In this document: positions 1,739 to 33,155 of the stretch, piece by piece | Layout of the letters: each line of letters opens with the position of its first letter | Position numbering within the stretch: the stretch's first letter is position 1 | DNA from: Microtetraspora sp. NBRC 16547 | Lineage (GTDB): Bacteria; Actinomycetota; Actinomycetes; Streptosporangiales; Streptosporangiaceae | Assembly (NCBI RefSeq): GCF_030268965.1 | Contig: NZ_BSSE01000046.1 | Coordinates: 1-33,155 of the forward strand | Length of the DNA: 33,155 bases | Direction of reading: 5' to 3' | The notes under the pieces: model-generated | Databases searched by the model: none | What the model was told of the DNA's origin: nothing | Seen by the model: only the letters and a program-made list of their open reading frames with translations | Made by a program: the position numbers and the translations under genes

Positions 1739-1774
1739 GGACGTTCCTCGCGAAGCGGGCGGGCAGGGGGAAGG

Positions 1775-12300: not shown

Positions 12301-12660
12301 GACCTCGGCCGCGGCCGGGGAGAGGCCGAAGAAGCCGGCGTCGAAGTCTCCCGGCGCGTCCAGGAAGCCACCATGGCGGGTGGCCGAGTGGCCCGGCGCG
12401 TCCGAGCGGTGCAGCGCGTCCACGTCCCAGCCCCGGTCGGCGGGGAACTCGGTGATCGCGTCGGCGCCGTCGGCCAGCAGCCGCCACAGCTCCTCTGGAG
12501 TGGTGACCCCGCCCGGATAGCGGCAGCCCATCCCGATGATGGCGATCGGCTCGGTCCGTTCCTCCTCCGCCGCGCGCAGCCGCTCGCGAGCCTCGTGCAG
12601 CTCGCGGGTGACCCAGCGCAGACTCTCCAGCACGCGGTGGTCGGTCGCCTGCTCACCCAT
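9319..12660 (-). CDS. Modular type I PKS, second gene (module 3: KS-AT-ACP, methylmalonyl)
   Basis: 1113 aa from ATG at 12660. The frame stays open upstream to 12792, but ATG 12660 gives an 8-nt overlap with the upstream stop and begins exactly at a docking helix ([20 protein letters not shown]), so it is preferred. KS Cys205 in DTACSSS, with an unusual segment [14 protein letters not shown] where the neighbours have [16 protein letters not shown] Ser647 in [10 protein letters not shown] and YASH at 746-749 indicate methylmalonyl-CoA. No KR, DH or ER: after the AT comes a Gln/Gly/His-rich linker (about residues 916-945), then ACP Ser995 in GFDSAAA. It should add one methyl-branched unit and leave the beta-keto. 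The C-terminal tail ([18 protein letters not shown]) is a docking element for the third gene's product. Confidence 0.97.
9834..9918. repeat. Repeat-built Gln/Gly/His linker in module 3
   Basis: Low-complexity DNA with a 36-bp period: cctgccccag starts at 9834 and again at 9870, each followed by a near-copy. It encodes runs of GQ, GH and DQ between AT3 and ACP3, exactly where a KR would sit in a reducing module. It looks like a slippage-grown spacer. Confidence 0.8.
11372..11856. repeat. KS3 segment nearly identical to KS2 segment (485 bp)
   Basis: This half-KS segment aligns without gaps to 16794-17278 in module 2. By eye there are only about two dozen differences, while the flanking KS and AT DNA diverges quickly. 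Both copies carry many TTG and GAT codons, unlike the surrounding coding sequence. Confidence 0.85.
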
Positions 12661-15600: not shown

Positions 15601-18600
15601 AGGTCTCGGCGAGCGCGGTGGCCAGCACCGGGTGCGGGCTGCACTCGATGAAGACGTCGTGGCCCGCGTCGAGCAGTGCCGTGGTGGCCTTCGCGAACTC
15701 GACCGGCTGCCTGAGGTTGCGGTACCAGTAGCCGGCGTCGAGGCCCGCGGTGTCGAGGGGCGCGCCGGTCACCGTGGAGTAGAACGGGACGTCTCCGGAT
15801 ACTGGGCTGACGGGGGCCAGGAGCCGGCCCAGCTCGTCCTCGATCAGTTCCACATGGGGCGAGTGGGAGGCGTAGTCGACCGCGACCCTCCTGGCCCGGA
15901 CGTCCTGGGCGGCGCAGGCCGCCATGAACTCGCCGAGCGCGCCGGCGTCGCCGGACATCACGGTGGAGGAGGCGCTGTTCACCACCGCGACGGAGATGCG
16001 CCCGTCCCACGGCTCGGCCAGTTCGCGGGCCCGGCTCACCGGGAGGGCCACCGACACCATGCCACCGCGGCCCGACAGGGCCGCCAGCGCCCTGCTACGC
16101 TCCACGACCAGCCTGGCGCCGTCCTCCAGGGACAGCCCGCCGGCCACCACCGCCGCCGCGATCTCACCCTGAGAGTGCCCCACCACCGCCGCGGGCTCGA
16201 CTCCGCAGGATCGCCACACCGCCGCCAGCGACACCATCACCGCCCACAGCGCGGGCTGTACGACATCGACCCGCTCCAGCGCGGCGGCGTCGCCGAGCAC
16301 ATCCGGCAGCCAACAGCCGGTGAAGGGCTCCAAGGCCGCCGCGCACTCAGCCATCCGCTCGGCGAACACCGGGCTGGACGCGATCAGCTCCAGCCCCATC
16401 CCGGCCCACTGCGAGCCCTGCCCGGGGAACACGAACACCACCCGACGGCCCTGCTGTGCGACCCCGGTCACCGCACCGCCGCCGCTCCCGCGCTCGGCGA
16501 TGGCGCTCAGCCCTTCGCGGGAGCCGCCGAGAACGACGGCACGGTGGTCGAACAGCGTACGCGTCAGCAGCGCGCGGCCCACCGCGGCGGCGTCGGTGTC
16601 CGCCAGCGGCATCAGGTTGCGGGCCTGCTCCCGGAGCGCGGGTTCCGACTTGGCCGACAGCACCCACGGCACCACCGGCAGATCCGGCCCGGTCTCCTCG
16701 GGGGGTTGGGGCACCGCCTCCAGAATGACGTGCGCGTTGGTGCCACTGATCCCGAACGAGGACACCGCGGAGCGGCGGGCGCGGATGGTCTCGGGCCAGT
16801 TCCTCGTCTCGGTGAGCAGTTCGACGGCCCCGGCCGACCAGTCGACGTGCGGCGACGGCTCATCGGCGTGCAACGTCTTCGGCAACACCCCATGCCGCAT
16901 CGCCTGCACCATCTTGATCACCCCGGCCACCCCGGCCGCGGCCTGCGTATGCCCGAGATTCGACTTGATCGACCCCAGAAACAACGGCGTCTCACGCCCC
17001 TGCCCGTAGGTGACCAGCAACGCCTGCGCCTCGATCGGATCGCCCAACGGCGTCCCCGTCCCATGCGCCTCCACCACGTCCACATCCACCGTGGACAGAC
17101 CCGCACTCCCGAGCGCCTGACGAATCACCCGCTCCTGCGACGGCCCGTTCGGCGCCGTCAACCCATTCGACGCACCATCGGAATTCACCGCAGAACCACG
17201 CACCACCGCCAGCACCGGATGCCCGTTGCGCCGCGCGTCCGACAACCGCTCCAGCAACAACATCCCCGCGCCCTCGGCCCAGGCCGTGCCGTCCGCGGCG
17301 GCGGCGAACGGCTTGCAGCGCCCGTCGGGGGCCAGCGCGCGCTGGCGGCTGAACTCGACGAAGGAGCCGGGCGTCGCCATCACGGCGACCCCTCCGGCCA
17401 GCGCCAGAGAGCACTCCCCCTGCCGCAGCGCCTGGGCCGCGAGGTGCAGGGCGACCAGCGAGGACGAGCATGCGGTGTCAACCGTGACCGACGGGCCCTC
17501 GAAACCGAACGTGTAGGACACCCGCCCGGACACGACGCTCCCCGAGCCGCCGGTGAACGAGTAGCCTTCGGCCTCCTCGGGCAGCGGTGCCAGCCGTGCG
17601 GTGTAGTCGTGGTACATCGCGCCCGCGAAGACGCCGGTACGGCTCCCGCGCAGCGCGCCCGGGTCGATCCCCGCGTGCTCGAACGCCTCCCAGGACGTCT
17701 CCAGCAGCAGCCGCTGCTGCGGGTCCATCGCGGTCGCCTCGCGCGGGCTGATGCCGAAGAACTCGGCGTCGAACATCCCGGCGTCGTGCAGGAAGCCACC
17801 GCTGGTGGTGTACGTGCGGCCGGGGCGGTCGGGGTCGGCGTCGTACAGCGCCTCGGTGTCCCAGCCACGGTCCGAAGGGAACCCGGTGATCGCGTCGGTG
17901 CCCTCGGCCACCAGCCGCCACAGGTCGTCGGGGGTTCGCACGTCGCCGGGGAACCGGCAGGCCATGCCCACGATCGCGATCGGCTCGCCGTCAGCGGCGG
18001 CCGGTGCAGGGCGCGACTCGGGCGCCGCTGCCCGGGGCGCGCCCAGGTCCGCGCACAGCCGGTCGATCACCGCCTCCGGGCTCGGGTGGTCGAACAGCAA
18101 GGTGGCGGGCAACCGCAGGCCGGTCACGGCGGCCAGCCGGTTGCGCAGTTCCACCGAGGTGAGGGAGTCGAAGCCGATCTCCTTGAACGCCCGGCCAGGT
18201 TCGATGGAGGCCGTGGCCGCCAGTCCCATGACCGCGGCGATCTCGTCGCGCACGAGGGCCGCCACGGCGTCCCTGTCCAGGTTCGCGCCACGCGGAGCCG
18301 CGGTGGCGCCGGTCCTTCCCGCCCGGGGGCGGACGAGCCCGCGCAGCAGGCCGGGCACCGTTCCAGCGGCCCGCAACCCCGCCTCGTCCAGCCTCAGCGG
18401 CACGAGCAGGGCCTCGCCCGAGGCGCGGGCGGCGTCGAACAGCTCGATTCCCTCCCGCGTGGGCAGCGCGCCGACGCCGGTCCTGGCCATCCTCGCCCGG
18501 TCCGCGGCGGCGAGCCCGCCCGCCATGCCCCCATCCGTTTCCCACAGGCCCCACGCCAGCGCCGTGGCGGGAAGTCCCGCGGCCCGCCGGTGGTGCGCCA

Positions 18601-21600
18601 GCGCGTCGAGGAAGGTGTTGGCCGCCGCGTAGTTCGCCTGCCCTGCCGTGCCGAGCAGGCCCGAGACCGAGGAGAACACCGTGAACTCGGCGAGTTCGAG
18701 GTCTCGGGTCAGTTCATGGAGGTTCCAGGCGCCGTCGAGCTTGGCCCGCAGGACGTCGTCGATCCGGTTCGCGTCCAGCGCTTCCACCGGACCGTCGGCC
18801 AGCACACCGGCGGTGTGGATCACGGAGGTCAGCGGACGGTCCGCCGGGATGCCGCCGAGCAGTGTGCGCACGGACTCCCGATCGGCGACGTCGCAGGCGG
18901 CCAGCGTCGCCTCCGTCCCAAGGTCCCGCAGCTCCGCGGCCAGTTCCCCGGCGCCTTCCGCCGCCGGGCCACGGCGGCTGACCAGCAGCAGGTGCCGTGC
19001 GCCTTGCCGGGCCATGGCACGGGCCAGTTCCCTGCCGAGCCCGCCGGTCGCTCCGGTGATCAGGACGGTGCCGTCGGGCTCGCCGGCCCGGGGGCCGCCG
19101 ACCGGAACGGTCGCCCGCGCGAGCCTGGGCACGAGAACCCGGCCGTCGCGGAGCGCCAGCTCCCTCTCGCCGGTCGCGACCGCGGCTGCGATCCCCTCGG
19201 GCGTGGCACCGGTGCCGGTGCCGGCGTCGGCGTCGAGCAGCACGAACCGGCCGGGGTACTCGGTCTGCGCCGAGCGGAGGAGGCCCCACACCGGCGCCTG
19301 GGCCAGGTCCGCCACGTCCTCCCCTGGCAGGACGGCGACCGCCGAGCGGGTCACGAACACCAGCCGGGCGTCCGCGAAGCGGTCACCCGCGAGCCAGGCC
19401 CGGACCAAGCCGAGCACGCGATCGACGGCGGCACGGGCCCGCTCCGGGAGGCCGGGCGCCGCTCCGGTCTCGCACCGCACGGCCACGACGTCCGGCACGG
19501 TCGTCAACCCGGCGAGATCGGCTTCCGGGCCGAGAACGACGCAGGTCAGGCTGGTGGGCGGGGCGGGCACAGGGGTCCAGCCGACGCGGTAGAGGTCGGG
19601 GTGGGTCACGGTGGCCCCCCCGGCGATCCGATCCGCGGAAGCCGGTCGCAGGGCCAGGGCACCGACCGAGGCGATCGGCGCTCCTGACGGGTCGGTGAAG
19701 GACATGGCGACACCGTCGGCGGACGGTGTGTACCGGACGCGGGCGGCGCTCGCGCCGACCGCGTGCAGGGCGACCTCGTGCCAGGAGAACGGGATCCGGC
19801 CTTCAGCGGCGTCCGCCGGGTCGCCGAACGCGACCGCGTGCAGAGCGGCGTCGAGCAGCGCCGGGTGCAGGCCGTAGTGCGCGGCCTCGGCCTGCCGGTG
19901 CTCGGGCAGTACAACCTCGGCGAACAGCTCGTCACCCCGGCGCCACACCTCGCGCAGGCACCGAAACTCGGGACCATAGTCGAAGCCGAGCTCGGCAACG
20001 CGGTCGTAGAGGCCGCCGATGTCCACCGGCTCGGCCCCGTCCGGGGGCCAGGCTCCGGTCTCCGGCGCGGTGGCCGCGGCGGAGGCGGTGGTGGTGGTCG
20101 AGACGGTGGCCGAGACGGCGGCCGTCGCGTTGCGGGTCCACCCGGCGGTCACCGCCGGCGAGTCGGGCCTGGAGGAGACCGCCAGCGCGCGGCGGCCTGA
20201 CTCGTCGGGCACGCCCAACGTCACCTGGACCTGGACGCGACCGTCGGCGGGCAGCACCAGCGGCGCCTCCAGGACCAGCTCGTCCACCCGATCGCACCCG
20301 ACGTGCCCGCCCGCCAGCAGTGCCAGCTCCACGAACGCGCTGCCGGGCAACAGGTTCGCGCCTAGGACGACGTGCTCGGCCAGCCACGGCTGGGTGCGCA
20401 CCGACAGCACTCCGGTGAACAGCGCCTCGCCGGTCCCGGCGACCTCGGCTCCACCGGCGAGCAGCGGGTGGCCGGTCGGGGTCAGGCCGGCGGAGGCGGC
20501 GTCCGCGGGGACCGAGCGCGACGGGAGCCAGTAGCGCTGCCGGTCGAAGGCGTAGGTCGGCAGGCCGGCCAGCAGGTCGGCCCGCAGGTCAGTCCGTGGG
20601 TCGGCTGGCGGCGTGCCGGGGAAGACCGCCGTCCAGTCGGGGTCGATGCCCCGCGCGTACAGGTCGGCGAGCGCGGTGAGCACCGTCGCCGGTTCCGCGC
20701 GGCCGGCACGCAGCGCCGGGAGGAACGCGGTCCCCGTGGCGTCGGGCAGGCAGTCGCGCGCCATCGCGGTCAGCACGCCGTCCGGCCCCAGCTCCAAGAA
20801 CGTCGTGACCCCGGCTCCGGCCAGCCGCTCGACCGCGGCCGAGAAGCGTACGGTGTCCCGGACGTGCCGGACCCAGTGATCCGCGGTGCCGGGGTCGCCG
20901 GAACCGCCGACGACCAGCGGGATCCTGGCCGGGCGGAACGTCACCGTTCCGGTGACTTCCCGGAACCGGTCCAGCATCCCGTCCATGGCCGGGGAGTGGA
21001 AGGCATGACTGACGTTGAGCCGCCGCGTCTTGCGGCCGAGCCCGGCGACATGGGCCTCTATCTCCGCGACCGCGCCGGCGGCGCCCGCGACCACCACCGC
21101 CTGCGGCCCGTTGACCGCCGCCAGGGATACCTCGTCCTCACGGCCGTCCAGCAGCGGCAGTACCTCGCCCTCGGCCGCCTGCAGCGCGACCATCGCGCCA
21201 CCTTCGGGCAGCGCGTCCATCAGCGTGCCGCGAGCGGCGACCAGCCGGGCCGCGTCCGGCAGGTCCAGGATCCCCGCGGCGTGCGCAGCGGCCAGTTCGC
21301 CGACCGAATGCCCGGCGACGAAACCCGGGGCCACGCCCCAGTGCTCGAACAGCCGGAACAGGGCCGTCTCCACCGCGAACAGCGCGGGCTGGGTGTAGGC
21401 GGTGCGGTTCAGCAGGGCCGCCTCCGGAGTACCGTCCGCGGCGAACATCACCTCGCGCAGCGGGCGCGGAAGGTGCGGATCGAGCGCGGCGAACGCGTCG
21501 TCCAGCGCGGCGGCGAACACCGGCAGCGTTGCGTACAGCTCATGGGCCATCCGGGCGCGCTGGGCCCCCTGACCGGTGAACAGGAAGGCTGTCTTTCCGC

Positions 21601-24600
21601 CGGTGACGCGGGCGGTCGCGCTTCCGCGTTCCGCCAGGGACTTCAGCGCGTCGAGGTAGCCGTCACGGTCCGCCGCGACCAGCCCGGCGCGGTACTCGAA
21701 CGCGGTGCGTGCGGCCAGCGTCCCGGCCACCGCGGCGAGGTCGAGTTCAGGATGCTCGGCCAGGTACGCCCACAGCCGCCCCGCCTGCCGGGCCACCGCG
21801 CCGGGTGTCTTCGCCGAAATCACCAGCGGCGCCTGGAGACCACCGCCACCGGCGGTCCCAGCGGCGGTGGGCACTGAGGCGGAGGGCACTGAGGCGGAGG
21901 GCACTGAGGCGGAGGGCGCCTCCTCCAGGATGAGGTGCGCGTTGGTGCCGCTGATGCCGAACGACGACACGGCAGCCCGGCGCGGCCGCCCGCCCTCCGG
22001 CCAGGCCACGGGCTCGGTCAGCAGCCGCATCGCCCCCGACGACCAGTCCACGTGCGGGGTCGGGTTCTCCGCGTGCAGGGTCCGCGGCAGGACGCCGTGG
22101 CGCAGGGCCAGCACCATCTTGAGCACGCCGCCAACCCCGGCGGCGGCCTGCGCGTGTCCGATGTTGGACTTCAGCGAGCCCAGGTATACCGGGGTCTCGC
22201 GGTCCCGCCCGTAGGTCTCCAGCAGGGCACGCGCCTCGATGGGGTCGCCGAGGGTCGTGCCGGTGCCGTGTGCCTCCACCGCGTCCACGTCCGACGTGGA
22301 CAGCCCGGCGTCGGCGAGTGCCTGGCGGATCACCCGTCGCTGCGCGGGCCCGCTCGGCGCGGTCAGGCCGTTAGACGCTCCGTCGGAGTTCACCGCCGAC
22401 CCGCGTACGACGGCCAGCACCGGATGCCCGTTGCGCAGCGCGTCCGAGAGCCGTTCCAGCAGCACCACGGCGGCGCCTTCCGCCCAGCCCGTACCGCCGG
22501 CCTCGGCAGAGAACGCCCTGCACCGGCCGTCGTCGGACAGCCCGCCTTGCTTGGCGAACTCGGCGAACATCCCCGGCCCTGACATCATGGCCACCCCGCC
22601 CGCCAGCGCCATTCCACACTCACCCGCTCGCAGCGCCTGGCACGCGAGGTGCAGGGCCACCAGGGAGGATGAGCACGCGGTGTCCACGGTGACCGCCGGG
22701 CCCTCCAGCCCGAAGGTGTAGGCGACCCGGCCCGAGATGAGGCTCGTCGTGGTGCCGGTGAGCAGATGCCCCTCGAAGCCCTCCGCGGCCTCGGACAGGC
22801 GCGGCCCGTACTCGTGGGAGGTGGCGCCGAGGAAGACGCCGCCGCGATGACCGCGCACGTTCGCCGGCCGGATGCCCGCGCGCTCGAACGCCTCCCACGC
22901 GATCTCCAGCATCAGGCGCTGCTGCGGGTCCATGGCGAGCGCCTCGCGCGGGCTGATCCCGAAGAACGCGGGATCGAACTCCGCCGCGCCGGTCAGGAAA
23001 CCGCCGTCGCGGACGGCGTCGGTGTCCCAGCCCCTGTCGGCCGGCGGCGCGCCGACCGCGTCACGGCCCTCGTCGACCAGCCGCCACAGGTCCTCAGGAG
23101 TGTGAACGTCGCTGGGGAACCGGCAGGCCATGGCGACGATGGCGATCGGCTCGCGACTGGTGGAGGCGGGCGCGGCTTCCCCGGCGTCACCGCGTCTTGC
23201 AAGGTGTCCGGCCATATCGACTCCTGCCGGGTGTCCGGCCACATCGAGTCCTGCCAGGTGTGCGGCCAGTGCCGCGGGCGTCGGCTGCTCGTACAGCAGG
23301 GTCTCGGGCAGCGCGTGGCCCGTCACCTCGGCGAGCCGGTCGCGCAGTTCCAGCCCACCCAGGGAGTCGAGCCCGAGGTCGCGGAACGCCCGCCCGGGAT
23401 CGACATCGTCACCGGCCGGATAGTCAAGAACGGCCGCGACCTCGGCCCTCACCAGCTCCAGCGCGACCGCCTCGGAAAGCGGGCCCGCGGGAGCGTGGGT
23501 CTCCTCGGGGATCGAAGTGCCGGAGGGCATGGGAACACCGCGCCGTTCCCATGCCCTCTCGGACAACCAGTGGCGTCCGCGCTGGAACGCGTAGCCGGGC
23601 AACTCGACGCGGTCGCCGTTCCATGGGGCGAAGACGGCCGCCCAGTCGATGTCGCGGCCCGAGGTGTGCAGGCCCGCCAGGGCCCGCAGGACCGCGGCGA
23701 CCTCGGGACGGCCGCCGCGCTGCGCCGGCACGGCGGCGGCCGGTCCTGTGACGGTGGCGCGAACCTGCTCGACAAGCACACCGGTGGGGCCGACCTCGAC
23801 GAAGTCGGTGACCTCGGCGGCCTCCAGCGTCTGGACAGCCTCGGCGAACCGCACGGCCTCGCGGGCCTGCCGCACCCAGTAGCCGGCGTCGCGTAGTTCG
23901 TCGTCCGCGATCCGCCCGGTCAGCGTGGACACCAGCGGTATCGCCGGACTCCGGTACGAGACCTCCCGCGCCACCGCGCCGAACTCGCGCAGCATGGGAT
24001 CGATCAGCGCGGAGTGGAACGCGTGGCTGACCCGGAGCCGCTTGGTGCGGTGCCCGCCTCCGGCGAGCGCGTCCGCCGTGGCGAGCACCGCGTCCTCCCC
24101 GCCCGAGAGCACCACCGACGCGGGCCCGTTGACCGCCGCGATCGAGACCTCCGGGCTCAGGTACGGCAGGACGTCCGCCTCGGCCGCGTCGACGGCGACC
24201 ATCGCGCCGCCGCGCGGAAGCGCCTGCATCAAGGAGCCGCGCGCCGCGACCAGGCGTGCCGCGTCCGCGAGCGAGAACACCCCCGCCACGTGGGCCGCGG
24301 CCAGCTCACCGACCGAATGCCCCACGACGAAGTCCGGGCGGGCCCCGGCGGTTTCGAGCAGGCGGAACAGGGCCACCTCGAACGCGAACAGCCCAGCCTG
24401 GGTGTAGACGGTCTCCGCGAGCACGTCCTCGGCCTCGGGCGACTCCGCGGCGAGCACAACCTCCTTCAGCGGGCGGGGGAGGAGGCCGTCGAGCGCGGCG
24501 CACACGGCGTCGAACTCGTGCGCGAACGCCGGGAAGGCCGCGGCGAGTTCCCTGCCCATGCCGAGCCGCTGGCTGCCCTGGCCGCTGAACAGGAAGGCGA

Positions 24601-26173
24601 GCGCGCCGCGCTCCCCCACCGTGCCGCGCACGATCTCGCGACCACCGCCGCCGTCCGCGAGCGTGCCAAGCCCGCGCAACAGCGCGTCCCGGTCGCCGCC
24701 GACCACGACCGCCCGGTGCTCGAACGCCTTGCGCGTGGTGGCCAGCGAGAGACCGACGTCCACGATGCCGGCGTCGGGCAGCGCGGCCACGTGGTCACGC
24801 AGGCGGGCCGCCTGGGCCCGGAGGGCTTCGGGCGTTCGTCCCGAGACCAGCCACGGAACCGCCGACGCCGTGGACGGGGTCGGCGCCGTGGACGGGGTCG
24901 GCGCCGTGGACCGAGCCGGCGGTTCTTCGAGCACCACGTGGCAGTTCGTGCCGCCCATGCCGAACGACGACACGCCCGCGACGAGCGGCCGGTCCGGATC
25001 GGGCCAGTCGTCCAGCGCCGTCTGCACCCGCAGGCCCAGTTCCCCGAGCGGGATCGCGGGGTTGGGGGTCGCATGGTCCAGGGTCGGCGGAAGCTTCCGG
25101 TGCCGCATGGCGAGCACCACCTTGACCAGCCCGGTGATCCCGGCCGCCGCCTCGCCGTGGCCGACGTTCGGCTTGACTGATCCCACCGCCAGTCGCGGGC
25201 CCGTGGGCCGGCCGAGTACCTGGCCGAGCGCCGAGGCCTCGGCGGGGTCGCCGGCCTTGGTCCCGGTGCCGTGCAGTTCGACGTACTGGACCGCCCGCGG
25301 CTCGACACCGGCACGCTCGTAGGCCAGCCGCAGCACCTGCGCCTGCCCCACGGGATCGGGGGCGGTCAGGCCGGCGCCGCCGCCGTCGTTGCCGACCGCG
25401 CCGCCGCGAATCACCGCGTGCACGATGTCGCCGTCGGCGAGCGCGTTCTCCAGGGGCTTCATGACCAGCGCCGCTCCGCCCTCGCCCCGCACGAAGCCGT
25501 TGGCGCGGGCATCGAAGACGTAGGCGTGCCCGTCCGGGGAGAGTCCGCCGAAGCGCTCGGCCAGCGCCACGGCCTCCGGCACGAGGTTGAGGTGCACGCC
25601 TCCGGCGATCGCGACCGCGCATTCCCCGCGGCGCAGGCTCTCCACGGCCTGGTGCACCGCCACGAGCGAGGACGACTGCCCGGAGTCGACGGTGTAGCTG
25701 GGGCCTCGCAGGCCGAGCGCGTATGAGACCCGATTGGCCACCAGTGAGCGGCGCACCCCGGCCATCGAGTACCGGGTGACGGCGTCGGCGCCTGCGCGAT
25801 CCAGCAGCGTGGCGTAGTCGTCGGACGCGGCGCCGACGAACACTCCGGTCCGCGCCCGGTCCGAGTCGCCGGGAACGATCCCAGCGTTCTCCATGGCCTC
25901 CCAGGCGAGTTCGAGCATGAGCCGTTGCTGGGGGTCCAGCGCGGCGGCCTCCCTCGGGGAGATCCCGAAGAAGGCGGGGTCGAAGTCCTCGACCCGGTCG
26001 AGGAACGCCGCGGGCGGCGCACCGGGCGCCACTGCCCGTCCGGCCGGAGGCTCACCGATCGCCGTGACACCGTCGCGCAGCATCGCCCAGAACTCGGCGG
26101 GCCCCGGCACCGAAGGCAGGCGGCAGGACAGGCCGACGATGGCGATACCGTCCACGCCCGGGGTTCGGCTCAT
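12653..26173 (-). CDS. Modular type I PKS, first gene (KSQ loading module plus modules 1 and 2)
   Basis: 4506 aa, ATG at 26173 with AGGAGG four bases upstream. Loading module: KSQ (about 8-425) with Gln166 in DSGQSSS in place of Cys, which decarboxylates malonyl-ACP; AT Ser620 in GHSVGE and HAFH 717-720 (malonyl); ACP Ser937. Acetate starter expected. Module 1: KS Cys1167; AT Ser1623, HAFH 1723-1726 (malonyl); DH His1934 (HxxxGxxxxP) and Asp2108; [10 protein letters not shown] and Tyr2515; ACP Ser2670. Module 2: KS Cys2902; AT Ser3334 in GHSQGE, YASH at 3434 (methylmalonyl); DH His3643 and Asp3804; [10 protein letters not shown] and Tyr4210; ACP Ser4366. Both KRs have LAD in the LDD position and a [11 protein letters not shown]-like context, fitting B-type and hence trans alkenes after DH. 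No ER is present. The N-terminus lacks a docking helix, as expected for the first protein. The C-terminus ([15 protein letters not shown]) docks to the second protein. Confidence 0.97.
12746..12805. repeat. In-frame 15-bp tandem repeat x4 in C-terminal docking linker
   Basis: Four copies of (g/a)ccgtctcgtcc(a/g)gc, encoding DGAGR-type pentapeptide repeats between ACP2 and the terminal docking helix of the first PKS protein. They lengthen the flexible tether that reaches the second protein. Confidence 0.92.
16794..17278. repeat. KS2 segment nearly identical to KS3 segment (485 bp)
   Basis: Partner of 11372-11856. It covers the His-motif half of KS2 and encodes the same [15 protein letters not shown] and [11 protein letters not shown] segments. 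Sharp similarity borders suggest gene conversion or module shuffling. Confidence 0.85.
21871..21915. repeat. In-frame 15-bp tandem repeat x3 in KS1-AT1 linker
   Basis: Three exact copies of gcactgaggcggagg, encoding PSASV repeats just after the end of KS1. Confidence 0.92.
23203..23267. repeat. In-frame 27-bp tandem repeat (about 2.4 copies) between ACP0 and KS1
   Basis: The unit begins ggtgtccggcca and repeats at 23203, 23230 and (partly) 23257. It encodes a nonapeptide repeat around [15 protein letters not shown] in the linker joining the loading ACP to KS1. Confidence 0.88.
24867..24912. repeat. In-frame 18-bp tandem repeat (about 2.5 copies) in KSQ-AT0 linker
   Basis: The unit gccgtggacggggtcggc repeats at 24867 and 24885, with a partial third copy. 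It encodes STAPTP repeats in the linker after the KSQ domain. Confidence 0.9.
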
Positions 26174-26217: not shown

Positions 26218-26260
26218 AAGCTAGAAGGGACGGCTTCCTTTTCACTTCCACCGGCTTTCC
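26218..26260 (-). promoter_or_regulatory. Predicted SARP-type promoter of the PKS operon
   Basis: Read on the minus strand: GGAAAGC (26260-26254), 4 bp, GGAAGTG (26249-26243), 4 bp, GGAAGCC (26238-26232), then exactly 8 bp, then TAGCTT (26223-26218) as a -10 element. SARP activators are known to bind heptameric direct repeats at an 11-bp period whose last copy lies 8 bp from the -10, and such promoters lack a good -35. All of these spacings are met. The -10 lies 44 nt upstream of the PKS ATG. The same layout occurs before the esterase at 30237-30279. The binding protein is inferred to be the neighbouring SARP. Confidence 0.72.
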
Positions 26261-26377
26261 GGCACTGAAAGTCACGAGCCGCATCGGGAAGGATCCGGTT
26301 CGTGGCCGACTGCGGGCAGCATGAAGCCCCTGGTCAGTGGGTGAGTGGAACGAAAGCGGCGCGACGGTGGACGCCGC

Positions 26378-26402
26378 CGGGCTCCGGGCTCGCCGGAGCC
26401 CG
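26378..26402. terminator. GC hairpin, likely terminator of SARP transcript
   Basis: Perfect 9-bp inverted repeat (cgggctccg / cggagcccg) with a 7-nt loop, about 320 bp past the SARP stop and 118 bp before the PKS operator. There is no T tract, as is common for actinobacterial terminators. It would separate SARP transcription from the PKS promoter. Confidence 0.5.
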
Positions 26403-26404
26403 AG

Positions 26405-26470
26405 GGTCACAGGAGGGCCGAGGTCACAGGAGGGCCGAGGTCACAGGAGGGCGAGGTCACAGGAGGGCGA
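26405..26470. repeat. Four tandem 16/17-bp repeats upstream of PKS promoter
   Basis: Two copies of ggtcacaggagggccga followed by two copies of ggtcacaggagggcga, head to tail. They lie between the hairpin at 26378 and the end of the TPR-like remnant, overlapping its last codons. Function unknown: either a slippage minisatellite or a multi-copy protein site. Confidence 0.9.
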
Positions 26471-26722
26471 GGATCTCGCGGGCCTTTCCGTCCAATCGCG
26501 TTCCAGGTGTGCGCCCGCCTCCTCGAACCGCCCGGCCACGCGCAGCGCGAGAGCGAGGCCGCCCAGCGCGGCGGCCTCGTCCGCGGACCAGCCCACCCGC
26601 TCCAGCATGTGCGACGCCTCGGTCAGCCGCACCAGCACCTGCTCTTTGATCTCCCGGCGAACGTAGGCCAGCCCGATGCTCAGCCCGCTGGCCGCCTCGA
26701 CGGCCGAAGACCCGCTCGGCCG
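26441..26722 (-). pseudogene. TPR-like remnant, probable lost C-terminus of the SARP regulator
   Basis: Directly after the SARP stop, another frame shifted by one base reads about 93 codons with strongly GC-ended wobble positions and ends in TGA. It contains a helix pair typical of tetratricopeptide repeats (ADEAAALGGLALALRVAGRF, then EEAGAHLE). AfsR-type regulators normally continue from the winged-helix region into a TPR domain, and the SARP here stops exactly where that would begin. A frameshift or internal deletion that left this piece is the simplest reading. It could instead be an independent small gene starting at GTG 26638, but that start has no clear ribosome site. The end runs into the tandem repeats. 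Confidence 0.5.
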
Positions 26723-26723
26723 A

Positions 26724-28613
26724 CTAAGCGGCGGACAGGTGCAGCTCGACGAACCGCCGCCACGCCTGCGCCCGGGACTGTGCGGGCTCGTGGGCGACCG
26801 CCTGACGCTGGGCGTAGACCCGTACCAGGTCGTGCAGCCGGTACCGGCCGGCGGCGTGCTGCTCGACGAGGTGGGCCGCGGCCAGCCTGCGGAGCTGCCT
26901 CGTCACCGTCTCGACCGGGTCACCTGCGAGCGCGGCGGCACCGTACACGGTGAAGTCTGCGCACGAGACCAGGCCGAGCAGCCGGAACAGGCGCCGCAGC
27001 TCGGGCGCGAGCGCCTCGTAGGAGGCGGCGAACGCCCGGGTCACGCCGCTCTCATCCACACCGTCGAGGATGAGAGCGGTGAGCCGGTCGCCCTCGGTCA
27101 GGTCGGCGACCATCGCGGCGATCGTGTTGTCCGGGCTGGTGGCGATGTTGGAGGCGGCGATCCGCAGCGCGAGCGGGAGGTGCCCGCACAGGCGGGCCAG
27201 TCCTTCGGCCGCCTCGGGCTCGGCGTCCACCCGGCCGTGGCCGAGCACCGTGCCCAGCAGCGTCCGCGACTCCGCCGCGCTCATCGGCGTCAGGTCGAGC
27301 GACAACGCCCCGGCCTCCCCGACGAGCCGGCCGAGCCGGTGACGGCTGGTCACCAGCACGGTCCCGGTCGGTGGGAGCAGCGGCAACACCTGCTCGGCGT
27401 CCCGCGCGCCGTCCAGCACCAGCAGCACCTTCCGGTCGGCCAGCAGCGACCGGTAGAGCCCGGCCTGCGCGTCGACCTCGTCGGGGATCCACCGCGGATC
27501 GACGCCGAGCGCGTGCAGCATCTGTGACAGCGCCTGCGCCGGCTCCAGCGGTTCGCAGTCGACCTCGAAACCGTTGAGGTCGACGTACAACTGCCCGTCA
27601 GGGAACCGGTCGCGTACCTGGTGGGCCCAGTGCAACGCGAGCGCCGTCTTGCCGGCCCCGGCGATGCCGTGCAGGACCCACACGTCCGAGTGCGTGCCCG
27701 CCGGGGCGGCGAGCTGGGCGTTCAGCCGGGCCAGGTGCTCCGTCCTGCCGACGAAGCGGGGCACGTCCCTGGGCAACTCGGCCGGCCGCATCAGCTGGAC
27801 GGTTCCCATGATCGGCGTGGCCGGCTCCCGCTCGGCCGCGTCGTCCAGGACGCTCCTGAGCACTTGCCGGTGCGCGGCCTGCAGCCGTTCCCCGGGTTCG
27901 ACCCCGAGCTCGGCATCGAGCCGACGCCGTGCGGCGGTGTAGACCTCCAACGCCTCCGGCACCCGCCCGGACCGCTGCAGCGCCAGCATCAGCTGTTCCT
28001 GCAGCCGTTCCCCGAATGGGTATTCCTCGACCAGCACCAGCAGCTCTCGTACCACCTGCATGTGGCGGCCGATGGCGAGCTCGGCGTCGTACAGCGTCTC
28101 CAGCACGGCTCTGCGCCGCTCGGACAGGACCGGGCCGCTGCGCCGCAGGAGCGCGTCGGTCACGCCACCGAGCGGTGGGCCCTGCCACAGCTCCAGCCCG
28201 AGCCGCAGGCGCTCCACACCACCACGCGGGTCTCCGTGGTCGATCAGGTCCTGCGCTTCCCTGGCGATGTCGTCGAACAGGTCGACATCCAGCTCACCCG
28301 GCTTGACCTCGATCAGGTAGCCGGGCACCCTGCGTACGATCGCGGACCGGCCGAGCAGGTTGCGCAGCTCCCAGATCCGCACCTGAATCTGCCCCCGGGC
28401 GCTGGCCGGCGGCCGGTCCTCCCACAGCAGGTCGACCAACTGCTCCTCGGACACGACCTGGTTCGGGTTGAGCAGGAGAGCCGCGAGGACGGTCCGCTGC
28501 TTGGGCCCGCCGAGCCGGACCGGGCCGTCCGGGCCGAACGCCGCGACCGAGCCGAGCAGCCGGTACTTCAGGTCGGCGAACCCCGGCCTGGCCAACCCGT
28601 TGCGGAGCGTCAC
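26724..28613 (-). CDS. SARP/AfsR-family transcriptional activator with NB-ARC ATPase domain
   Basis: 629 aa, GTG start; the reading YRLLGSVAAFGPDGPVRLGG is the typical SARP opening. Domains: OmpR-type winged helix (about 18-100; VSEEQLVDLLW, GQIQVRIWELRNLLG), bacterial transcriptional activation domain (about 105-255; DVDLFDDIAREA, RRRLDAELGVEPGERLQ), then NB-ARC with Walker A GIAGAGKTAL (Lys322), Walker B-like KVLLVLDGA and GHLPLAL, then a winged-helix region to HDLVRVYAQRQ. Family members bind 11-bp-period direct repeats and recruit RNA polymerase to antibiotic biosynthesis promoters. Two such sites are present (26218-26260 and 30237-30279), making this the likely pathway activator. The protein ends without the TPR domain common in AfsR-type proteins; a possible relic lies just downstream in another frame. 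No TTA codon was seen. The start is overlapped by a short leader frame. Confidence 0.92.
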   Translation of the reverse strand: MTLRNGLARPGFADLKYRLLGSVAAFGPDGPVRLGGPKQRTVLAALLLNPNQVVSEEQLVDLLWEDRPPASARGQIQVRIWELRNLLGRSAIVRRVPGYLIEVKPGELDVDLFDDIAREAQDLIDHGDPRGGVERLRLGLELWQGPPLGGVTDALLRRSGPVLSERRRAVLETLYDAELAIGRHMQVVRELLVLVEEYPFGERLQEQLMLALQRSGRVPEALEVYTAARRRLDAELGVEPGERLQAAHRQVLRSVLDDAAEREPATPIMGTVQLMRPAELPRDVPRFVGRTEHLARLNAQLAAPAGTHSDVWVLHGIAGAGKTALALHWAHQVRDRFPDGQLYVDLNGFEVDCEPLEPAQALSQMLHALGVDPRWIPDEVDAQAGLYRSLLADRKVLLVLDGARDAEQVLPLLPPTGTVLVTSRHRLGRLVGEAGALSLDLTPMSAAESRTLLGTVLGHGRVDAEPEAAEGLARLCGHLPLALRIAASNIATSPDNTIAAMVADLTEGDRLTALILDGVDESGVTRAFAASYEALAPELRRLFRLLGLVSCADFTVYGAAALAGDPVETVTRQLRRLAAAHLVEQHAAGRYRLHDLVRVYAQRQAVAHEPAQSRAQAWRRFVELHLSAA

Positions 28614-28675
28614 CCGGCGCTCCCCGGGCCGAACCCAAAGCGCCGATTTCTCTCCGCTGCTTGAGCCCTCACCAT
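28610..28675 (-). CDS. Possible 21-codon leader frame coupled to the SARP gene
   Basis: ATG at 28675 lies 10 nt after GGAGG (28690-28686) and opens a 21-codon frame (begins MVRAQAAERNRRFGF). Its TGA overlaps the SARP GTG as GTGA, the classic 4-nt coupling overlap. It has a better ribosome site than the SARP itself. It could set SARP translation by coupling. No homology is recognised, and chance occurrence is possible. Confidence 0.4.
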   Translation of the reverse strand: MVRAQAAERNRRFGFGPGSAG

Positions 28676-28745
28676 CGCGGATCCGCCTCCTTACCCCATG
28701 CGCTCAGTCACCGTTCTCAACGCCCGGTCACTGCCCGGCCAGAAA

Positions 28746-28787
28746 TCTCGCGAGAGCAACTTGCCAGCGAGCCCACAAGATCGTCAA
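28746..28787 (-). promoter_or_regulatory. Candidate promoter and palindromic operator of the SARP gene
   Basis: On the minus strand TTGACG (28787-28782) is followed after 18 bp by CAAGTT (28763-28758), a weak -10. The perfect 10-bp palindrome TCTCGCGAGA (28755-28746) would then lie at the start site, where a repressor could act. The 272-bp divergent gap also holds AAACGTTT (28796-28803) and is the most AT-rich stretch of the region. No SARP-type heptads were seen here. Confidence 0.25.
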
Positions 28788-28947
28788 CGAAAAGTAAACG
28801 TTTCGCGCATGCCCAAAATGCGACATTGCACATCAAACTGGACCAAATGGAAGGTTTCGTGACCGAACCGGAGGACCGAAAACAGAGGCAACACATGCAC
28901 CGTTACCGTGGCTTACCTGGCCGCGAAAAGGGGGATGGCTCCAAGAA

Positions 28948-29907
28948 ATGTTGAAAATTCTATTTACGGCAGCGGATCTGACGAAGGTCACCGTCGCGGA
29001 GGACGCCAACCCGATGTGGGAACTGTTACTGAGCACCTACCGGCTCCGGCGGCCGGAGGGCGAGCCCATCTTCGGCCGATGGCGCCGAGCGTCGCGCGCT
29101 GCGGTCCCCGACTCCGGCGAGATGCTCATGTCCGCCATCCCCCCCTACGGCTACTGCCCCGACTTCCTCACCCCATCCGAGGCGAGGACGGTCGGCGAGG
29201 GCATCTCGACCATGGTCGAGGCCCCTCACGAGAAGCTGGCCGGCGACATCGCCGAGCTCGCCGTACAGAGCCGCCGCATCCCGCCGTGGCTGCGCCGCAT
29301 CGGCGACGGGGAGCCACGCGAACTACGGCGGCTGGCCACCGCGCTCCATGACTACTTCCAGCGGTGCATCGCCCCCAGCTGGCCCGCCGTACAACGGACC
29401 GTCGCCTCCGAACGCCGCCGAATGCAGTCGGCCCTCGATCGCGGCGGCCCCCAACTGCTGCTTTCGACCCTGCATCCGGACGTCACCTGGCAGCCGCCGG
29501 TCCTGCACGTGCGGTTCCCCGTCGCACAGGAGCTCCACCTCGGCGGACGCGGACTGCGCCTGCTCCCATCGTTCTTCGCACACGGAATGCCAACCACCTA
29601 CAAGGACCCGGCACTGCCGCCGGTGCTGGTCTACTCGATCGGCCATGCCCGCCTCGGCAGCGACGCCGAGCCCGGCCCGTCCCTGGCCGCGCTGCTGGGG
29701 CACACCCGCGCACGAGTGCTCATGACGATCGCGATCACCACGTGCAACACCAGCAGCCTCGCCGAGATGACCGCCATCTCGATCGCCACCGCGAGCCAGC
29801 ACGCTTCGGTCCTGCGCGCGAGCGGGCTGATCACCAGCACGCGGTGCGGGAAGTCGCAGATCCACGAGATCACCCCGCTCGGCCTCGCCGTCATCAGGGC
29901 GAGCTGA
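28948..29907 (+). CDS. ArsR-like winged-helix regulator with DUF5937-type N-terminal region; contains a TTA codon
   Basis: 319 aa. The start MLKILFTAADLTKV matches the usual opening of an actinobacterial family with a long N-terminal domain of unknown function (I recall it as DUF5937) and a C-terminal ArsR-like winged helix. The helix-turn-helix is around residues 262-310 (SLAEMTAISIATASQHASVL, then RASGLITS and a wing). Divergent from the SARP across a shared 272-bp gap (334 bp to the SARP start), so it may regulate that promoter or itself. A TTA codon at 29026-29028 sits near the 5' end. TTA is very rare in such genomes and, in Streptomyces, needs the bldA tRNA, so expression may be tied to development. 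The first codons (AAA ATT CTA TTT) are AT-rich and the ribosome site is weak. Ligand unknown. Confidence 0.85.
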   Translation: MLKILFTAADLTKVTVAEDANPMWELLLSTYRLRRPEGEPIFGRWRRASRAAVPDSGEMLMSAIPPYGYCPDFLTPSEARTVGEGISTMVEAPHEKLAGDIAELAVQSRRIPPWLRRIGDGEPRELRRLATALHDYFQRCIAPSWPAVQRTVASERRRMQSALDRGGPQLLLSTLHPDVTWQPPVLHVRFPVAQELHLGGRGLRLLPSFFAHGMPTTYKDPALPPVLVYSIGHARLGSDAEPGPSLAALLGHTRARVLMTIAITTCNTSSLAEMTAISIATASQHASVLRASGLITSTRCGKSQIHEITPLGLAVIRAS

Positions 29908-29974
29908 CTTCGGGCCTCCTGTACCGCGTCAGAACCCATCGCACAGGGACTGAGCTGCCTTTCCTTCGAAGCAG

Positions 29975-30094
29975 CTATGCGGCTCGGTGGTACTCGTTGA
30001 TTACCCCGCCGAGCACTTGCCGACGCTTGATCGAACCTTCCAACGGTACGACGGCCCGCTCATCGTGATCAGGTGGGTACGGCCATCGGCCACA
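29975..30094 (-). pseudogene. Transposase/integrase C-terminal scrap
   Basis: A 39-codon stretch between two stops on the minus strand ends in RQVLGGVINEYHRAA and TAG, a tail I associate with actinobacterial integrase-type transposases. No start and no catalytic domain are present. It abuts the IS21-like scrap in a different frame, so this gap looks like decayed mobile DNA. Family assignment is from memory and tentative. Confidence 0.35.
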
Positions 30095-30236
30095 TCAGTC
30101 TCGCCAGCAGCTCCTGCTCCACCGTCCCCAGTCGAGGGCGGCGGTGGATCAGTTTCGGTTCCGGCGGCCAGGATGCCCTTGACTGTCTTGTAGGTCGGAG
30201 CCAGGTGGTGAGTGCCGGGCAGTGGTTCGCGGTCAT
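30095..30236 (-). pseudogene. IS21-type transposase (IstA-like) C-terminal scrap
   Basis: A minus-strand frame reads LPGTHHLAPTYKTVKGILAA then GTETDPPPPSTGDGG. The YKTVKGILAAGTE and STGDGG elements resemble the C-terminus of Streptomyces IS21 IstA proteins as I remember them. Only about 45 codons remain, with no DDE region. The scrap ends where the heptad operator of the esterase begins. Confidence 0.4.
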
Positions 30237-30279
30237 GGAAGCGCTTTGGAAGCGCTTTGGAAGCGCTCGTCCCTAGCGT
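30237..30279 (+). promoter_or_regulatory. Predicted SARP-type promoter of the esterase gene
   Basis: Three exact GGAAGCG heptads at 30237, 30248 and 30259 (11-bp period, spacers cttt), then exactly 8 bp, then TAGCGT (30274-30279) as a -10 element. This matches the layout upstream of the PKS operon (26260-26218) in period, spacing, heptad sequence and -10. The -10 lies 40 nt before the ATG, close to the 44 nt at the PKS. The units also contain AAGCGCTT palindromes, so a LacI-type repressor site is an alternative. The PKS copy has no such palindromes, which favours the SARP reading. Confidence 0.68.
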
Positions 30280-30319: not shown

Positions 30320-31921
30320 ATGATATGGGGTAAAGCGATCGCCGCGGCGGGTGCCGTGGTGGCGCTGGCGGTCTCGGGAACCGCAGGTACGGCGGCCGCG
30401 GACCAGGAGACGCGTGTCAGCGACGTGGTGACCACCAAGACCGGTTCGGTCCGCGGGACCGAGACCGCCGATCTGGTCACGTTCAAGGGCATTCCCTACG
30501 CGGCACCGCCGGTCGGTTCCCTGCGCTGGCGCGCGCCGCAGCCCGCCAAGCGGTGGAACGACGTCCTCGACGGTACGCAGTTCCGCAGCCAGTGTGCGCA
30601 GCTGGGCGGGCTCGGCGGCATCATCGAGTCCTACGAGGAGGACTGCCTCTACCTGAACGTCTTCGCGCCCAAGACGACCAAAGCCAAACCGGTGGTGGTC
30701 TGGTTCTACGGCGGCGGGTTCCAGAACGGGACCAGCTCGACCTACGACGCCGCGCAGCTGGCCGCCAAGGGTGACGTCGTGGTCGTCACGGTCAACTACC
30801 GGGTGGGCGTGCTGGGCTTTCTCGCACTGCCGTCGCTCGACCGCGAGACCCCGGGCGTGCAGTCCGGCAACTTCGGAATCGCCGACCAGCGCGCGTCGCT
30901 GACGTGGGTGCAGAGCAACATCGCCGGGTTCGGCGGGAACCCGAACAACATCACCATCGCCGGTCAGTCTGCCGGCGCCGGCGCGGCGTGCATCCACCTC
31001 GCCTCTCCGGCCTCGGCCGGGCTGTTCCAGCGCGCCATCGGCCAGACTTACAGTTGCGGCTCCCCACTGCTGACCAAGGACGCGGCCGAGACGATGGGTA
31101 CGACCCTCGCCGGGCAGTTCGGCTGCGCGGACGCGGCTAGGGCGGCGAACTGCCTGCGCGGTATCACCGACGTCAAGGCGCTCATGCAGGCCTGGCCGGC
31201 GCTGCCGCAGGGCCCGGTACTCGGCGGCAGAGAGATGCCGCTGCAGCCGATCGACGCCTTCCGGCAGGGGAAGTTCAACCGCGTCCCGATGTTGTGGGGC
31301 AACAACCGCGACGAGATGCGGATGATCGTCAGCATCCAGTACGACGCCTCCGGCAACCCGGTCACCGCCGAGACGTACCCGCAAATCATCCGCGCCACCT
31401 TCGGCGTCGACGCCGATCGCGTGCTGGCGCGCTACCCCGCGTCCGATTACCCGACGCCGGGCATCGCGCTTTCCGCGGTACTCAGCGACGCCGGTGACGA
31501 CCAGCTCGCCACCTGCCAGCACGTCGAGGCCTACCGGGCGGCGATCGCCGGGCAGGGCAAGCTGTTCACGTACCAGTTCTCCGACCGCACCGCCCCGCCG
31601 GTCGTCGACATCCCCGGCTTCGACGAAGGCGCCGAGCATGGTGCGGAGCTGAACTACCTGTTCCCGGGGTTCACCGGCGCGACCCTGAACGCGCAGCAGC
31701 AGGAGTTGTCCGACCAGATGGTCAAGTACTGGTCAGCGTTCGCCCGCACCGGCGACCCGAACACGACCGGCCTGCCCGCGTGGCCCCGCTTCACCACCGG
31801 GACCGCCCAGGACACGCTGTCGCTGGACCTCGCGGCGAACGGCGGCAACCAGAAGATCGACCTGGCCACCCGAAGCCAGTGCGACTTCTGGGCGACGGTA
31901 CCGCCCCCTCCGGGAGCCTGA
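30320..31921 (+). CDS. Secreted type-B carboxylesterase
   Basis: 533 aa, ATG at 30320 after GGAG five bases upstream. The N-terminus (Lys5, a hydrophobic Ala/Val run, then TAGTAAA before DQE) is a Sec signal peptide, so the enzyme should be exported. Alpha/beta-hydrolase of the carboxylesterase B family: EDCLYLNV signature at 107-114, oxyanion loop FYGGGF, nucleophile Ser217 in GQSAG, probable acid Glu332 (NRDEM; Asp331 adjacent) and His440 (AEHGAELNY). Length is normal for the family. Substrate unknown; family members hydrolyse or transesterify carboxylic esters. It lies beside a PKS and shares a matching predicted SARP promoter with it. It may therefore act on the pathway product, for example unmasking, removing or detoxifying an ester or lactone. 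Pathway membership is inference, not shown by the domain itself. Confidence 0.92.
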   Translation: MIWGKAIAAAGAVVALAVSGTAGTAAADQETRVSDVVTTKTGSVRGTETADLVTFKGIPYAAPPVGSLRWRAPQPAKRWNDVLDGTQFRSQCAQLGGLGGIIESYEEDCLYLNVFAPKTTKAKPVVVWFYGGGFQNGTSSTYDAAQLAAKGDVVVVTVNYRVGVLGFLALPSLDRETPGVQSGNFGIADQRASLTWVQSNIAGFGGNPNNITIAGQSAGAGAACIHLASPASAGLFQRAIGQTYSCGSPLLTKDAAETMGTTLAGQFGCADAARAANCLRGITDVKALMQAWPALPQGPVLGGREMPLQPIDAFRQGKFNRVPMLWGNNRDEMRMIVSIQYDASGNPVTAETYPQIIRATFGVDADRVLARYPASDYPTPGIALSAVLSDAGDDQLATCQHVEAYRAAIAGQGKLFTYQFSDRTAPPVVDIPGFDEGAEHGAELNYLFPGFTGATLNAQQQELSDQMVKYWSAFARTGDPNTTGLPAWPRFTTGTAQDTLSLDLAANGGNQKIDLATRSQCDFWATVPPPPGA

Positions 31922-32551: not shown

Positions 32552-32598
32552 TCAAGAAATAAGCCGTTGGTTTCTGATCTTGGGCTCGTTGGTGTGGT

Positions 32599-33028
32599 AT
32601 GGCCATCTCCACCGAGGTCCGCGAGCAACTCGAGCTGAGATTCATGGTGTTGTTGCCGCATCTGAACGAGCGCCAACAGCGGCTGATGTTGGCGGCCGAG
32701 GCACGGCTGCTCGGGCATGGAGGCGTGCGGGCCGTCGCCCAGGCGGCCGGAGTCAGCGAGACAACCGTCCGGTCAGGGATCTACGAACTGGAAGACGGCC
32801 ACGACCCCTGGCCTCCAGGCCGCGTCCGACGGCCAGGCGGAGGCCGCAAGCCGGTGACCGAACACAGTCCGGAACTGCTACCGCGCTGCTGGCACTGGTC
32901 GAGCCGGACGAGCGAGGCAACCCGCAATCACCACTGCGCTGGACCACCAAGTCACTGCGGAAGCTGGCCGAAGAACTGACCCGGCAAGGACACCATGTCT
33001 CGGCGCCAACGGTGGGCAAGCTATTGAA
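32599..33028 (+). pseudogene. ISAzo13-family transposase, N-terminal fragment with frameshift
   Basis: Begins MAISTEVREQLELRFMVLLP, then LNERQQRLMLAAEARLLGHG and GVRAVAQAAGVSETTVR (an N-terminal helix-turn-helix), typical of ISAzo13-type transposases. Near 32882-32884 one base appears to be missing: the frame turns to nonsense, while the shifted frame continues ALLALVEPDERGNPQSPLRW and LTRQGHHVSAPTVGKLL. Family similarity stops after GKLL at about 33025, where IS3-like DNA begins. No DDE catalytic domain is present, so the element is dead. Its left end lies close to 32552, against the cut IS256 gene. Confidence 0.8.
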
Positions 33029-33069
33029 GTGGAGTTGCCCCGGTTCGGTAGACACTTCACGAATTGGGA

Positions 33070-33155
33070 CTATGCGGCATCGTAGTGGACATTTCCTCTG
33101 ATCAATTCGTGGTAGCGGCGCTCGTACTCGGCGGGGCTGAGCTGGCCGTTGGCCG
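33070..33155 (-). CDS. IS3-family transposase OrfB, extreme C-terminus (gene continues beyond window)
   Basis: The last 27 codons of a minus-strand gene running off the right edge: NGQLSPAEYERRYHELIRGN, then VHYDAA and TAG. LSPAEYERRY is the usual ending of IS3-type OrfB. The end of the element is probably near 33029, where tggagttgccccggttcgg begins right after the broken ISAzo13 frame, so the IS3 copy seems inserted into ISAzo13. Integrity of the rest cannot be judged. Confidence 0.65.
   Translation of the reverse strand, partial: ANGQLSPAEYERRYHELIRGNVHYDAA

What the first reader, a model, noticed from the sequence alone, without database searches (positions are those of the whole stretch)
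26218..30279. Matched SARP-type promoters in front of the PKS operon and the esterase
Two promoters 4 kb apart on opposite strands share the same architecture: three GGAAG-type heptads at an exact 11-bp period, an exact 8-bp gap, then a TAGCNT -10 and a 40-44 nt leader. At the PKS the heptads are GGAAAGC, GGAAGTG, GGAAGCC with TAGCTT; at the esterase GGAAGCG three times with TAGCGT. This geometry is the established signature of SARP-activated promoters, and a SARP gene sits between them. The heptad differs from the classical TCGAG-type consensus, so this may be a distinct SARP specificity and defines a small regulon.
Basis: partly seen in the sequence, partly recalled or inferred. Interest (0 to 1): 0.82.

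Follow-up and report, generated by a model that had tools for sequence, protein, structure and literature searches.

The report
Two matched SARP-activator promoters, GGAAG type
Two gene switches on either side of an antibiotic-type regulator gene carry the same three-repeat docking pattern, and that pattern turns up beside similar regulators in other soil bacteria, so it looks like a real, not yet catalogued version of a known activator-promoter design.

Summary
Observation confirmed. Both promoters have three GGAAG-type heptads at 11 bp, an 8-bp gap and TAGCNT, 44 and 40 nt before good start codons. They are the only such sites in the 7.8-Mb genome, even as doublets with one mismatch.

The spacing is not chance. 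With spacings left free, all 7 exact matches in 297 family genomes (49 combinations) and all 7 in 345 order genomes (13 gap lengths; overlapping samples) have the window's values. Of 22 loci from named genomes, all 11 actinobacterial ones have the 8-bp gap, the other 11 scatter (3 of 11).

Assignment to the window SARP is supported: Saccharothrix SARPs with nearly the same recognition helix (15-16 of 18) lie just upstream of a GGAAG promoter; two of three genomes have one further site in that locus.

Corrections: the SARP lacks the TPR domain; a full-length paralogue has nearly the same helix; GGAAG operators also accompany very different SARP-LALs. Binding is untested. New variant of a known kind.

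The parts
26218..26260 (-). PKS promoter operator: three heptads at 11 bp, 8-bp gap, -10 TAGCTT
   Evidence: exact pattern match; sequence
30237..30279 (+). Esterase promoter operator: three GGAAGCG heptads at 11 bp, 8-bp gap, -10 TAGCGT
   Evidence: exact pattern match; sequence
26724..28613 (-). SARP, 629 aa: OmpR-type DNA-binding domain, BTAD, NOD/NB-ARC; no TPR
   Evidence: Pfam, NCBIfam, AfsR structures
12653..26173 (-). First PKS gene, 4506 aa, three KS-AT-ACP modules; start codon 44 nt after the -10
   Evidence: Pfam
2..12792 (-). Further PKS genes of the presumed operon (9319-12792, 1775-9322, 2-1738, the last cut by the contig end)
   Evidence: ORFs, Pfam
30320..31921 (+). Carboxylesterase, 533 aa, N-terminus looks like a signal peptide (not tested); start codon 40 nt after the -10
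   Evidence: PF00135 E 9.8e-116

Best explanation
The two sites are SARP-activated promoters of a GGAAG class. SARP monomers sit side by side on the 11-bp heptads, one per helical turn, on one face of the DNA. The third heptad, 8 bp before the -10, puts them where they can hold sigma region 4 in place of a poor -35 element, so RNA polymerase starts at TAGCNT. The activator is most likely the window SARP (28613-26724, minus), which switches on the PKS operon and the esterase together. Shown here: the pattern, its uniqueness in the genome, its fixed geometry in other genera, its closeness to SARP genes, and the recognition helix shared with Saccharothrix SARPs. Inferred: binding, activation, and that this SARP rather than its paralogue is the main activator. 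The mechanism is carried over from AfsR (PMC10936776, passages read).
For: Exactly two sites in 7.8 Mb, both flanking the SARP. Free-spacing searches return only the window's spacings: 7 of 7, 7 of 7 with TAGC in all (overlapping samples, 3 of the 7 orthologous, 1 the window's own), 11 of 11 actinobacterial loci. Saccharothrix SARPs with 15-16 of 18 helix residues the same have this promoter in the gap between their stop codon and the next gene. AfsR T88 and R92, the base-contacting residues, align with V78 and E82, in keeping with another heptad. No sigma-70 consensus match at either site, as expected of an activator-dependent promoter.
Against: No binding or 5'-end data. Two of four other family genomes with a SARP at least 48% identical (G042, G054) have no site at one mismatch. 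GGAAG promoters also go with SARPs whose helices differ widely (G106, SARP-LALs). G140 has 5 sites with no SARP found in the regions fetched around them. The paralogue has the same helix in 15 of 18. SARP homologues occur in 290 of 297 family genomes, so only closeness, not co-occurrence, counts.
Confidence: 0.78

Rival explanations
1. The sites are SARP operators, but the working activator is the full-length paralogue at G000:C11:39688-41514; the window SARP is a decaying or modulating copy.
For: The paralogue is 55-56% identical, keeps TPR and has 15 of 18 helix residues the same. It has no GGAAG site near it, so its targets could be these. The window SARP ends at 629 aa.
Against: The window SARP keeps 629 open codons, third-position GC 0.93 and an intact-looking Walker A motif (sequence), and lies between the two sites. 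Other relatives without a long C-terminus exist (e.g. G042, 569 aa).
Confidence: 0.13
2. Another regulator uses the repeats: the weakly ArsR-like protein at 28948-29907, or an extracytoplasmic sigma factor whose -35 is GGAAC-like (recalled).
For: An HTH gene lies between the sites (weak matches below curated cut-offs). GGAAG resembles a GGAAC -35 (recalled).
Against: Three repeats at 11 bp with a fixed 8-bp gap recur beside SARPs in other genera; one -35 element would not need this, and the 15-bp start-to-start distance to the -10 is short for such a sigma factor (recalled). No ArsR gene was seen to accompany the other sites, though it was not searched for.
Confidence: 0.06
3. Chance or tandem slippage produced the repeats.
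For: The esterase unit GGAAGCGCTTT is almost perfect over three copies, as slippage would leave it. A motif-free scan is not significant.
Against: No match in 100 shuffles. The PKS site has diverged spacers but kept heptads. The same spacings recur elsewhere.
Confidence: 0.03

Closest known systems
AfsR and its afs box before afsS (Streptomyces coelicolor; PMC10936776, PMC10972967, passages read)
   Same: Repeats at 11 bp, last one next to the -10 and the upstream one over the -35 region; SARP plus NOD architecture; PDB match E 3.6e-97
   Different: Two repeats CGTT(T/C)ATCG there, three GGAAG here; base-contacting T88 and R92 are V and E here; no TPR here
SARP promoters with three heptads (DnrI, ActII-ORF4, VlmI, FdmR1; PMC10972967, passage read)
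   Same: Three heptads; the 8-bp gap is the published general feature
   Different: Heptad sequence (TCGAG type for DnrI and ActII-ORF4 is recalled)
PimR operator, CGGCAAG x3 with 4-bp spacers (PMC5930380, passages read)
   Same: Three heptads with 4-bp spacers; a G- and A-rich core
   Different: PimR is a SARP-LAL; its operator does not overlap the -35; CGGCAAG is not GGAAG
Saccharothrix SARP with GGAAG promoter (L069, L071, L084; found here)
   Same: Helix 15-16 of 18 residues the same in L071 and L084; same heptads, gap and TAGCGT; one further site in the same locus in two of three genomes
   Different: SARP keeps TPR (Pfam on L084); targets are large RHS/LamG and BNR/LamG genes, not a PKS

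Membership tests
SARP-activated promoter | direct repeats spaced 11 (or 22) bp | tested here: met
   11-bp period at both sites; the only period returned with spacings left free
SARP-activated promoter | 3' repeat 8 bp from the -10 | tested here: met
   both sites; 7 of 7 and 11 of 11 actinobacterial loci
SARP-activated promoter | repeat overlaps the -35 region, which is itself poor | tested here: inconclusive
   If the -10 is at -12 to -7, heptad 2 spans -38 to -32 (arithmetic); no sigma-70 consensus match at either site; start sites unmapped
SARP-activated promoter | bound and activated by a SARP | not testable with these tools
   needs gel shift, footprint and reporter
SARP protein family | OmpR-type DNA-binding domain plus BTAD | tested here: met
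   Trans_reg_C E 2.8e-08 and BTAD E 1.1e-35, both above cut-off
AfsR-type large SARP | NOD (NB-ARC) domain | tested here: met
   AAA_16 and NB-ARC just above cut-off; aligned to AfsR through 609
AfsR-type large SARP | C-terminal TPR domain | tested here: not met
   no TPR in the 629 aa; AfsR equivalog model 429 bits against a cut-off of 1430, matched only to position 635 of 986

The most novel reading that the evidence does not exclude
GGAAG-TAGCNT is a SARP operator code that crosses actinobacterial orders, tied in one lineage to a recognition helix with Glu where AfsR has Arg92. In this genome two SARPs with nearly the same helix read the same two promoters: a full-length one with its TPR sensor and a TPR-less one without it, so the PKS and esterase receive one sensor-governed and one sensor-free input.
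Probability: 0.2. Interest if true: 0.65.

Novelty: new variant of a known kind. Interest (0 to 1): 0.5.

Why it matters
SARP binding sites are usually found one cluster at a time. Here an exact, searchable operator (three GGAAG heptads, 11-bp period, 8-bp gap, TAGCNT) marks likely SARP targets in several genera with few chance matches, and in one lineage links a heptad to a recognition helix. That makes SARP specificity testable by swapping helices and heptads, points to promoters worth switching on in silent clusters, and ties an esterase to this PKS product.

Tried and rejected
Chance and slippage: rejected. A scan for any 11-bp triple before TANNNT: weak (6 hits at 29 SARP loci against a Markov mean of 2.45, max 6 in 20 runs; window 2 against 0.54; its gap histogram is blurred by register shifts). 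Four of those 6 hits have another heptad, GAGGA-type, with TAGCGT; not pursued. A site at the own paralogue: none found. Class-wide scan with TANNNT: 3 of 394 genomes, the two others at 5 and 12 bp, 1 reversed-control hit. The guess that G448 is of the Saccharothrix family was probably wrong: 0 of 35, so co-occurrence across that family is untested. Papers: SARP plus GGAAG searches listed 15 and 2 (both among the 15). In the four whose GGAAG passages I opened (PMC5930380, PMC7296167, PMC7480387, PMC8780764) the hits shown were primers or adaptors; the other 11 were seen as listings only. Class V lanthipeptide plus SARP: no paper. Searches (12 of 697 listed) gave nothing relevant. 'Not catalogued' means only these searches of this library.

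Full report
What is in the sequence. The window is one whole contig (G000:C46) of an unnamed 7.8-Mb genome in 151 contigs. It holds PKS genes on the minus strand, cut at the contig's left end; a SARP (minus, 28613-26724); a weakly ArsR-like HTH gene (plus, 28948-29907; below curated cut-offs); a carboxylesterase (plus, 30320-31921); and part of an ISAzo13-type transposase. The first PKS gene has three KS-AT-ACP modules. This distance is not the leader length, as no start has been mapped.

Is it more than chance? The pattern occurs twice in the window and not at all in 100 shuffles, and twice in the genome with no reversed-control hit. Relaxed to a doublet plus TAGNNT with one mismatch, the genome still gives only these two, while the reversed control gives three. 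There is no sign of a larger regulon of this class, though 151 contigs leave small gaps. A weight matrix from nine outside sites, without the window's, ranks the two first and second in the window (30.3, 23.5; next 4.9). Against this, a scan for any 11-bp triple before TANNNT is not significant (window 2 against a mean of 0.54; 29 SARP loci 6 against 2.45, max 6). The evidence lies in the specific motif and its recurrence.

Does the spacing recur? Three searches left a spacing free. In 297 family genomes with both repeat spacings free from 3 to 9 (49 combinations), all 7 matches, in 7 genomes, have both at 6, an 11-bp period; reversed controls gave 2 hits. In 345 genomes of the order (341 of the same family, largely the same genomes), with the last gap free from 4 to 16, the same 7 sites came up, all with 10, that is 8 bp after the heptad, and all with TAGC where only TAG was asked; reversed controls gave 1. 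Three of the 7 look like one orthologous promoter (G100, G260, G271) and one is the window's own esterase site, so about four are independent and new. In the named-genome collection (84,980 species), with the last gap free from 6 to 14, 22 loci matched. All 11 labelled as Actinobacteria (4 Kribbella, 3 Saccharothrix, 3 Nonomuraea, 1 Acrocarpospora) have 8 bp; the other 11 have 6, 7, 8, 8, 8, 9, 9, 11, 12, 12 and 12. Five of the 11 are also among the family genomes or their orthologues, so these searches are not independent. One of the three others at 8 bp, an Ideonella MAG, has a SARP-LAL and an OsmC gene beside the site, so it is probably genuine. In a class-wide sample of 394 genomes only the window's site has the right gap; two others have 5 and 12 bp, and reversed controls gave 1. 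With one mismatch, 9 of 297 family genomes have 14 sites, with 0 reversed-control hits.

What lies beside the sites? Acrocarpospora (G106): an AMP-ligase/carrier gene 29 nt after the -10 and a condensation-domain gene, SARP divergent. Nonomuraea montanisoli (G221): divergent from a SARP; the target gene is unclear, the next ORF starting 256 nt on. Kribbella, G215, G127 (one mismatch) and the Ideonella MAG: an OsmC-like gene, with a SARP-LAL in the loci long enough to show it, and a flavoprotein gene in the actinobacterial ones so checked. Nonomuraea pusilla, N. turkmeniaca and G100: an operon that in G271 has phosphotransferase, HopA1-domain, methyltransferase, ABC, luciferase-like and flavoprotein genes, which recalls class V lanthipeptide clusters (recalled, not tested), with a SARP 14-15 kb downstream in all three. 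Of the 11 actinobacterial loci, 7 show a SARP within the 8-kb locus, 2 have one at 14-15 kb by way of G260 and G271, and 2 (L067, L074) are cut off just after the site. SARP homologues are common: 290 of 297 family genomes have one (E up to 1e-60), with 63 loose first-look candidates in the own genome, or about one per 124 kb. So a SARP within 5 kb by chance would be seen in under a tenth of cases, but the 14-15 kb cases count for little. Named organisms were tied to G handles by equal contig length and equal site sequence; the window's family, given Nonomuraea and Acrocarpospora in it, is probably Streptosporangiaceae (inference).

Which SARP reads the window's sites? The window SARP matches AfsR structures at E 3.6e-97. 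In that alignment AfsR R87-T88-Y89-A90-S91-R92-L93-R94-K95 falls on Q77-V78-R79-I80-W81-E82-L83-R84-N85. PMC10936776 (passages) reports base contacts by T88 and R92; both differ here, in keeping with a different heptad. The nearest helix outside the genome is that of Saccharothrix: 16 and 15 of 18 residues in L071 and L084 (L069 is cut there), with 55-57% identity over the matched protein. There the GGAAG promoter lies between the SARP gene's stop and the next gene, a large RHS/LamG gene. Two of the three Saccharothrix genomes have one further site at one mismatch, 15-17 kb away on the other strand, before a BNR/LamG gene that would start only 6 nt after the -10, and next to a second SARP (BTAD tested in G700); the third has one site only; reversed controls 0 in 8 genomes. 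So a pair of promoters in one locus recurs, with other target genes. In the family, genomes with a SARP at least 48% identical (own genome left out) have sites in 2 of 4 cases (G140, G221; not G042, G054), others in 6 of 292, P = 0.0037; the threshold was chosen after seeing the list. Against a strict code: G106 and the SARP-LALs have quite different helices, and no SARP was found around G140's five sites.

The short SARP. The window protein ends at 629 aa, after the NOD; its paralogue and the Saccharothrix, G140, G221, G106 and G054 relatives run from 928 to 1078 aa, and TPR was found in those scanned (paralogue, L084, G221). Short forms are not unique: G042 has 569 aa, and several matches have open frames of about 590-700 aa. 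Downstream, another frame gives weak TPR hits (best E 0.012, below cut-off), and the space before the PKS promoter is much less than a whole TPR part would need, so a deletion is likely. PMC10936776 (passages) says that AfsR without TPR binds and activates in vitro and that NOD is needed in vivo; but also that AfsR without TPR was less active than the bare SARP domain, so losing TPR does not by itself lift inhibition. The own paralogue has 15 of 18 helix residues the same and no GGAAG site near it, so both may act on the same two promoters. This is inference.

Comparison with known systems. The layout is the known SARP layout: repeats 11 bp apart, the last 8 bp before the -10 (PMC10936776, PMC4393881, PMC7040171, passages). 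Three repeats are reported for DnrI, ActII-ORF4, VlmI and FdmR1 (PMC10972967, passage). Repeats seen in these papers are GTCAGSS, CGGCAAG, CGTT(T/C)ATCG and the OtcR repeat CGGTCGAAG; TCGAG is recalled. GGAAG was not met as a SARP repeat in the searches named under Tried and rejected. So this is a new variant of a known kind, supported by comparison and untested at the bench.

Noticed in passing
window 26444-26758 (minus): Stretch after the SARP stop gives weak, below-cut-off TPR matches in another frame: possible remnant of the lost TPR domain.
   Followed up: partly
window about 26400-26475: About four copies of a GAGGTCACAGGAGGGC-like unit between the SARP and the PKS promoter, seen by eye.
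   Followed up: no
window 28948-29907: HTH gene with weak ArsR-like matches, divergent from the SARP; may be another cluster regulator.
   Followed up: no
window 32580-33101: ISAzo13-type transposase part at the contig's right end, beyond the esterase.
   Followed up: no
L039, L044-L047 (G140): Five GGAAG triple sites at one mismatch in one genome, alike in spacers too (GGAAGA...ACGGAAGA), with -10s mostly TAAC; no SARP found nearby: perhaps a wider regulon.
   Followed up: partly
L022, L025, L031, L035: Other heptads (GAGGA-type, three repeats at 11 bp) with the same 8-bp gap and TAGCGT near SARP genes; L025, L031 and L035 look orthologous.
   Followed up: no
L113, L116 (Saccharothrix): SARP-type promoters before a giant RHS/pretoxin-HINT gene and a BNR/LamG gene, with a terpene synthase on the other side of the SARP: SARP-type control of large surface or secreted-type proteins.
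   Followed up: partly
L073: An Ideonella MAG (Betaproteobacteria by its title) has a SARP-LAL, an OsmC gene and a GGAAG triple promoter, as in Kribbella: transfer or mis-binning.
   Followed up: partly
L055-L057, L091, L093, L096: Nonomuraea operon that recalls class V lanthipeptide clusters behind a conserved GGAAG promoter, SARP 14-15 kb away with the helix RNQVHRGVGELRKYG.
   Followed up: partly
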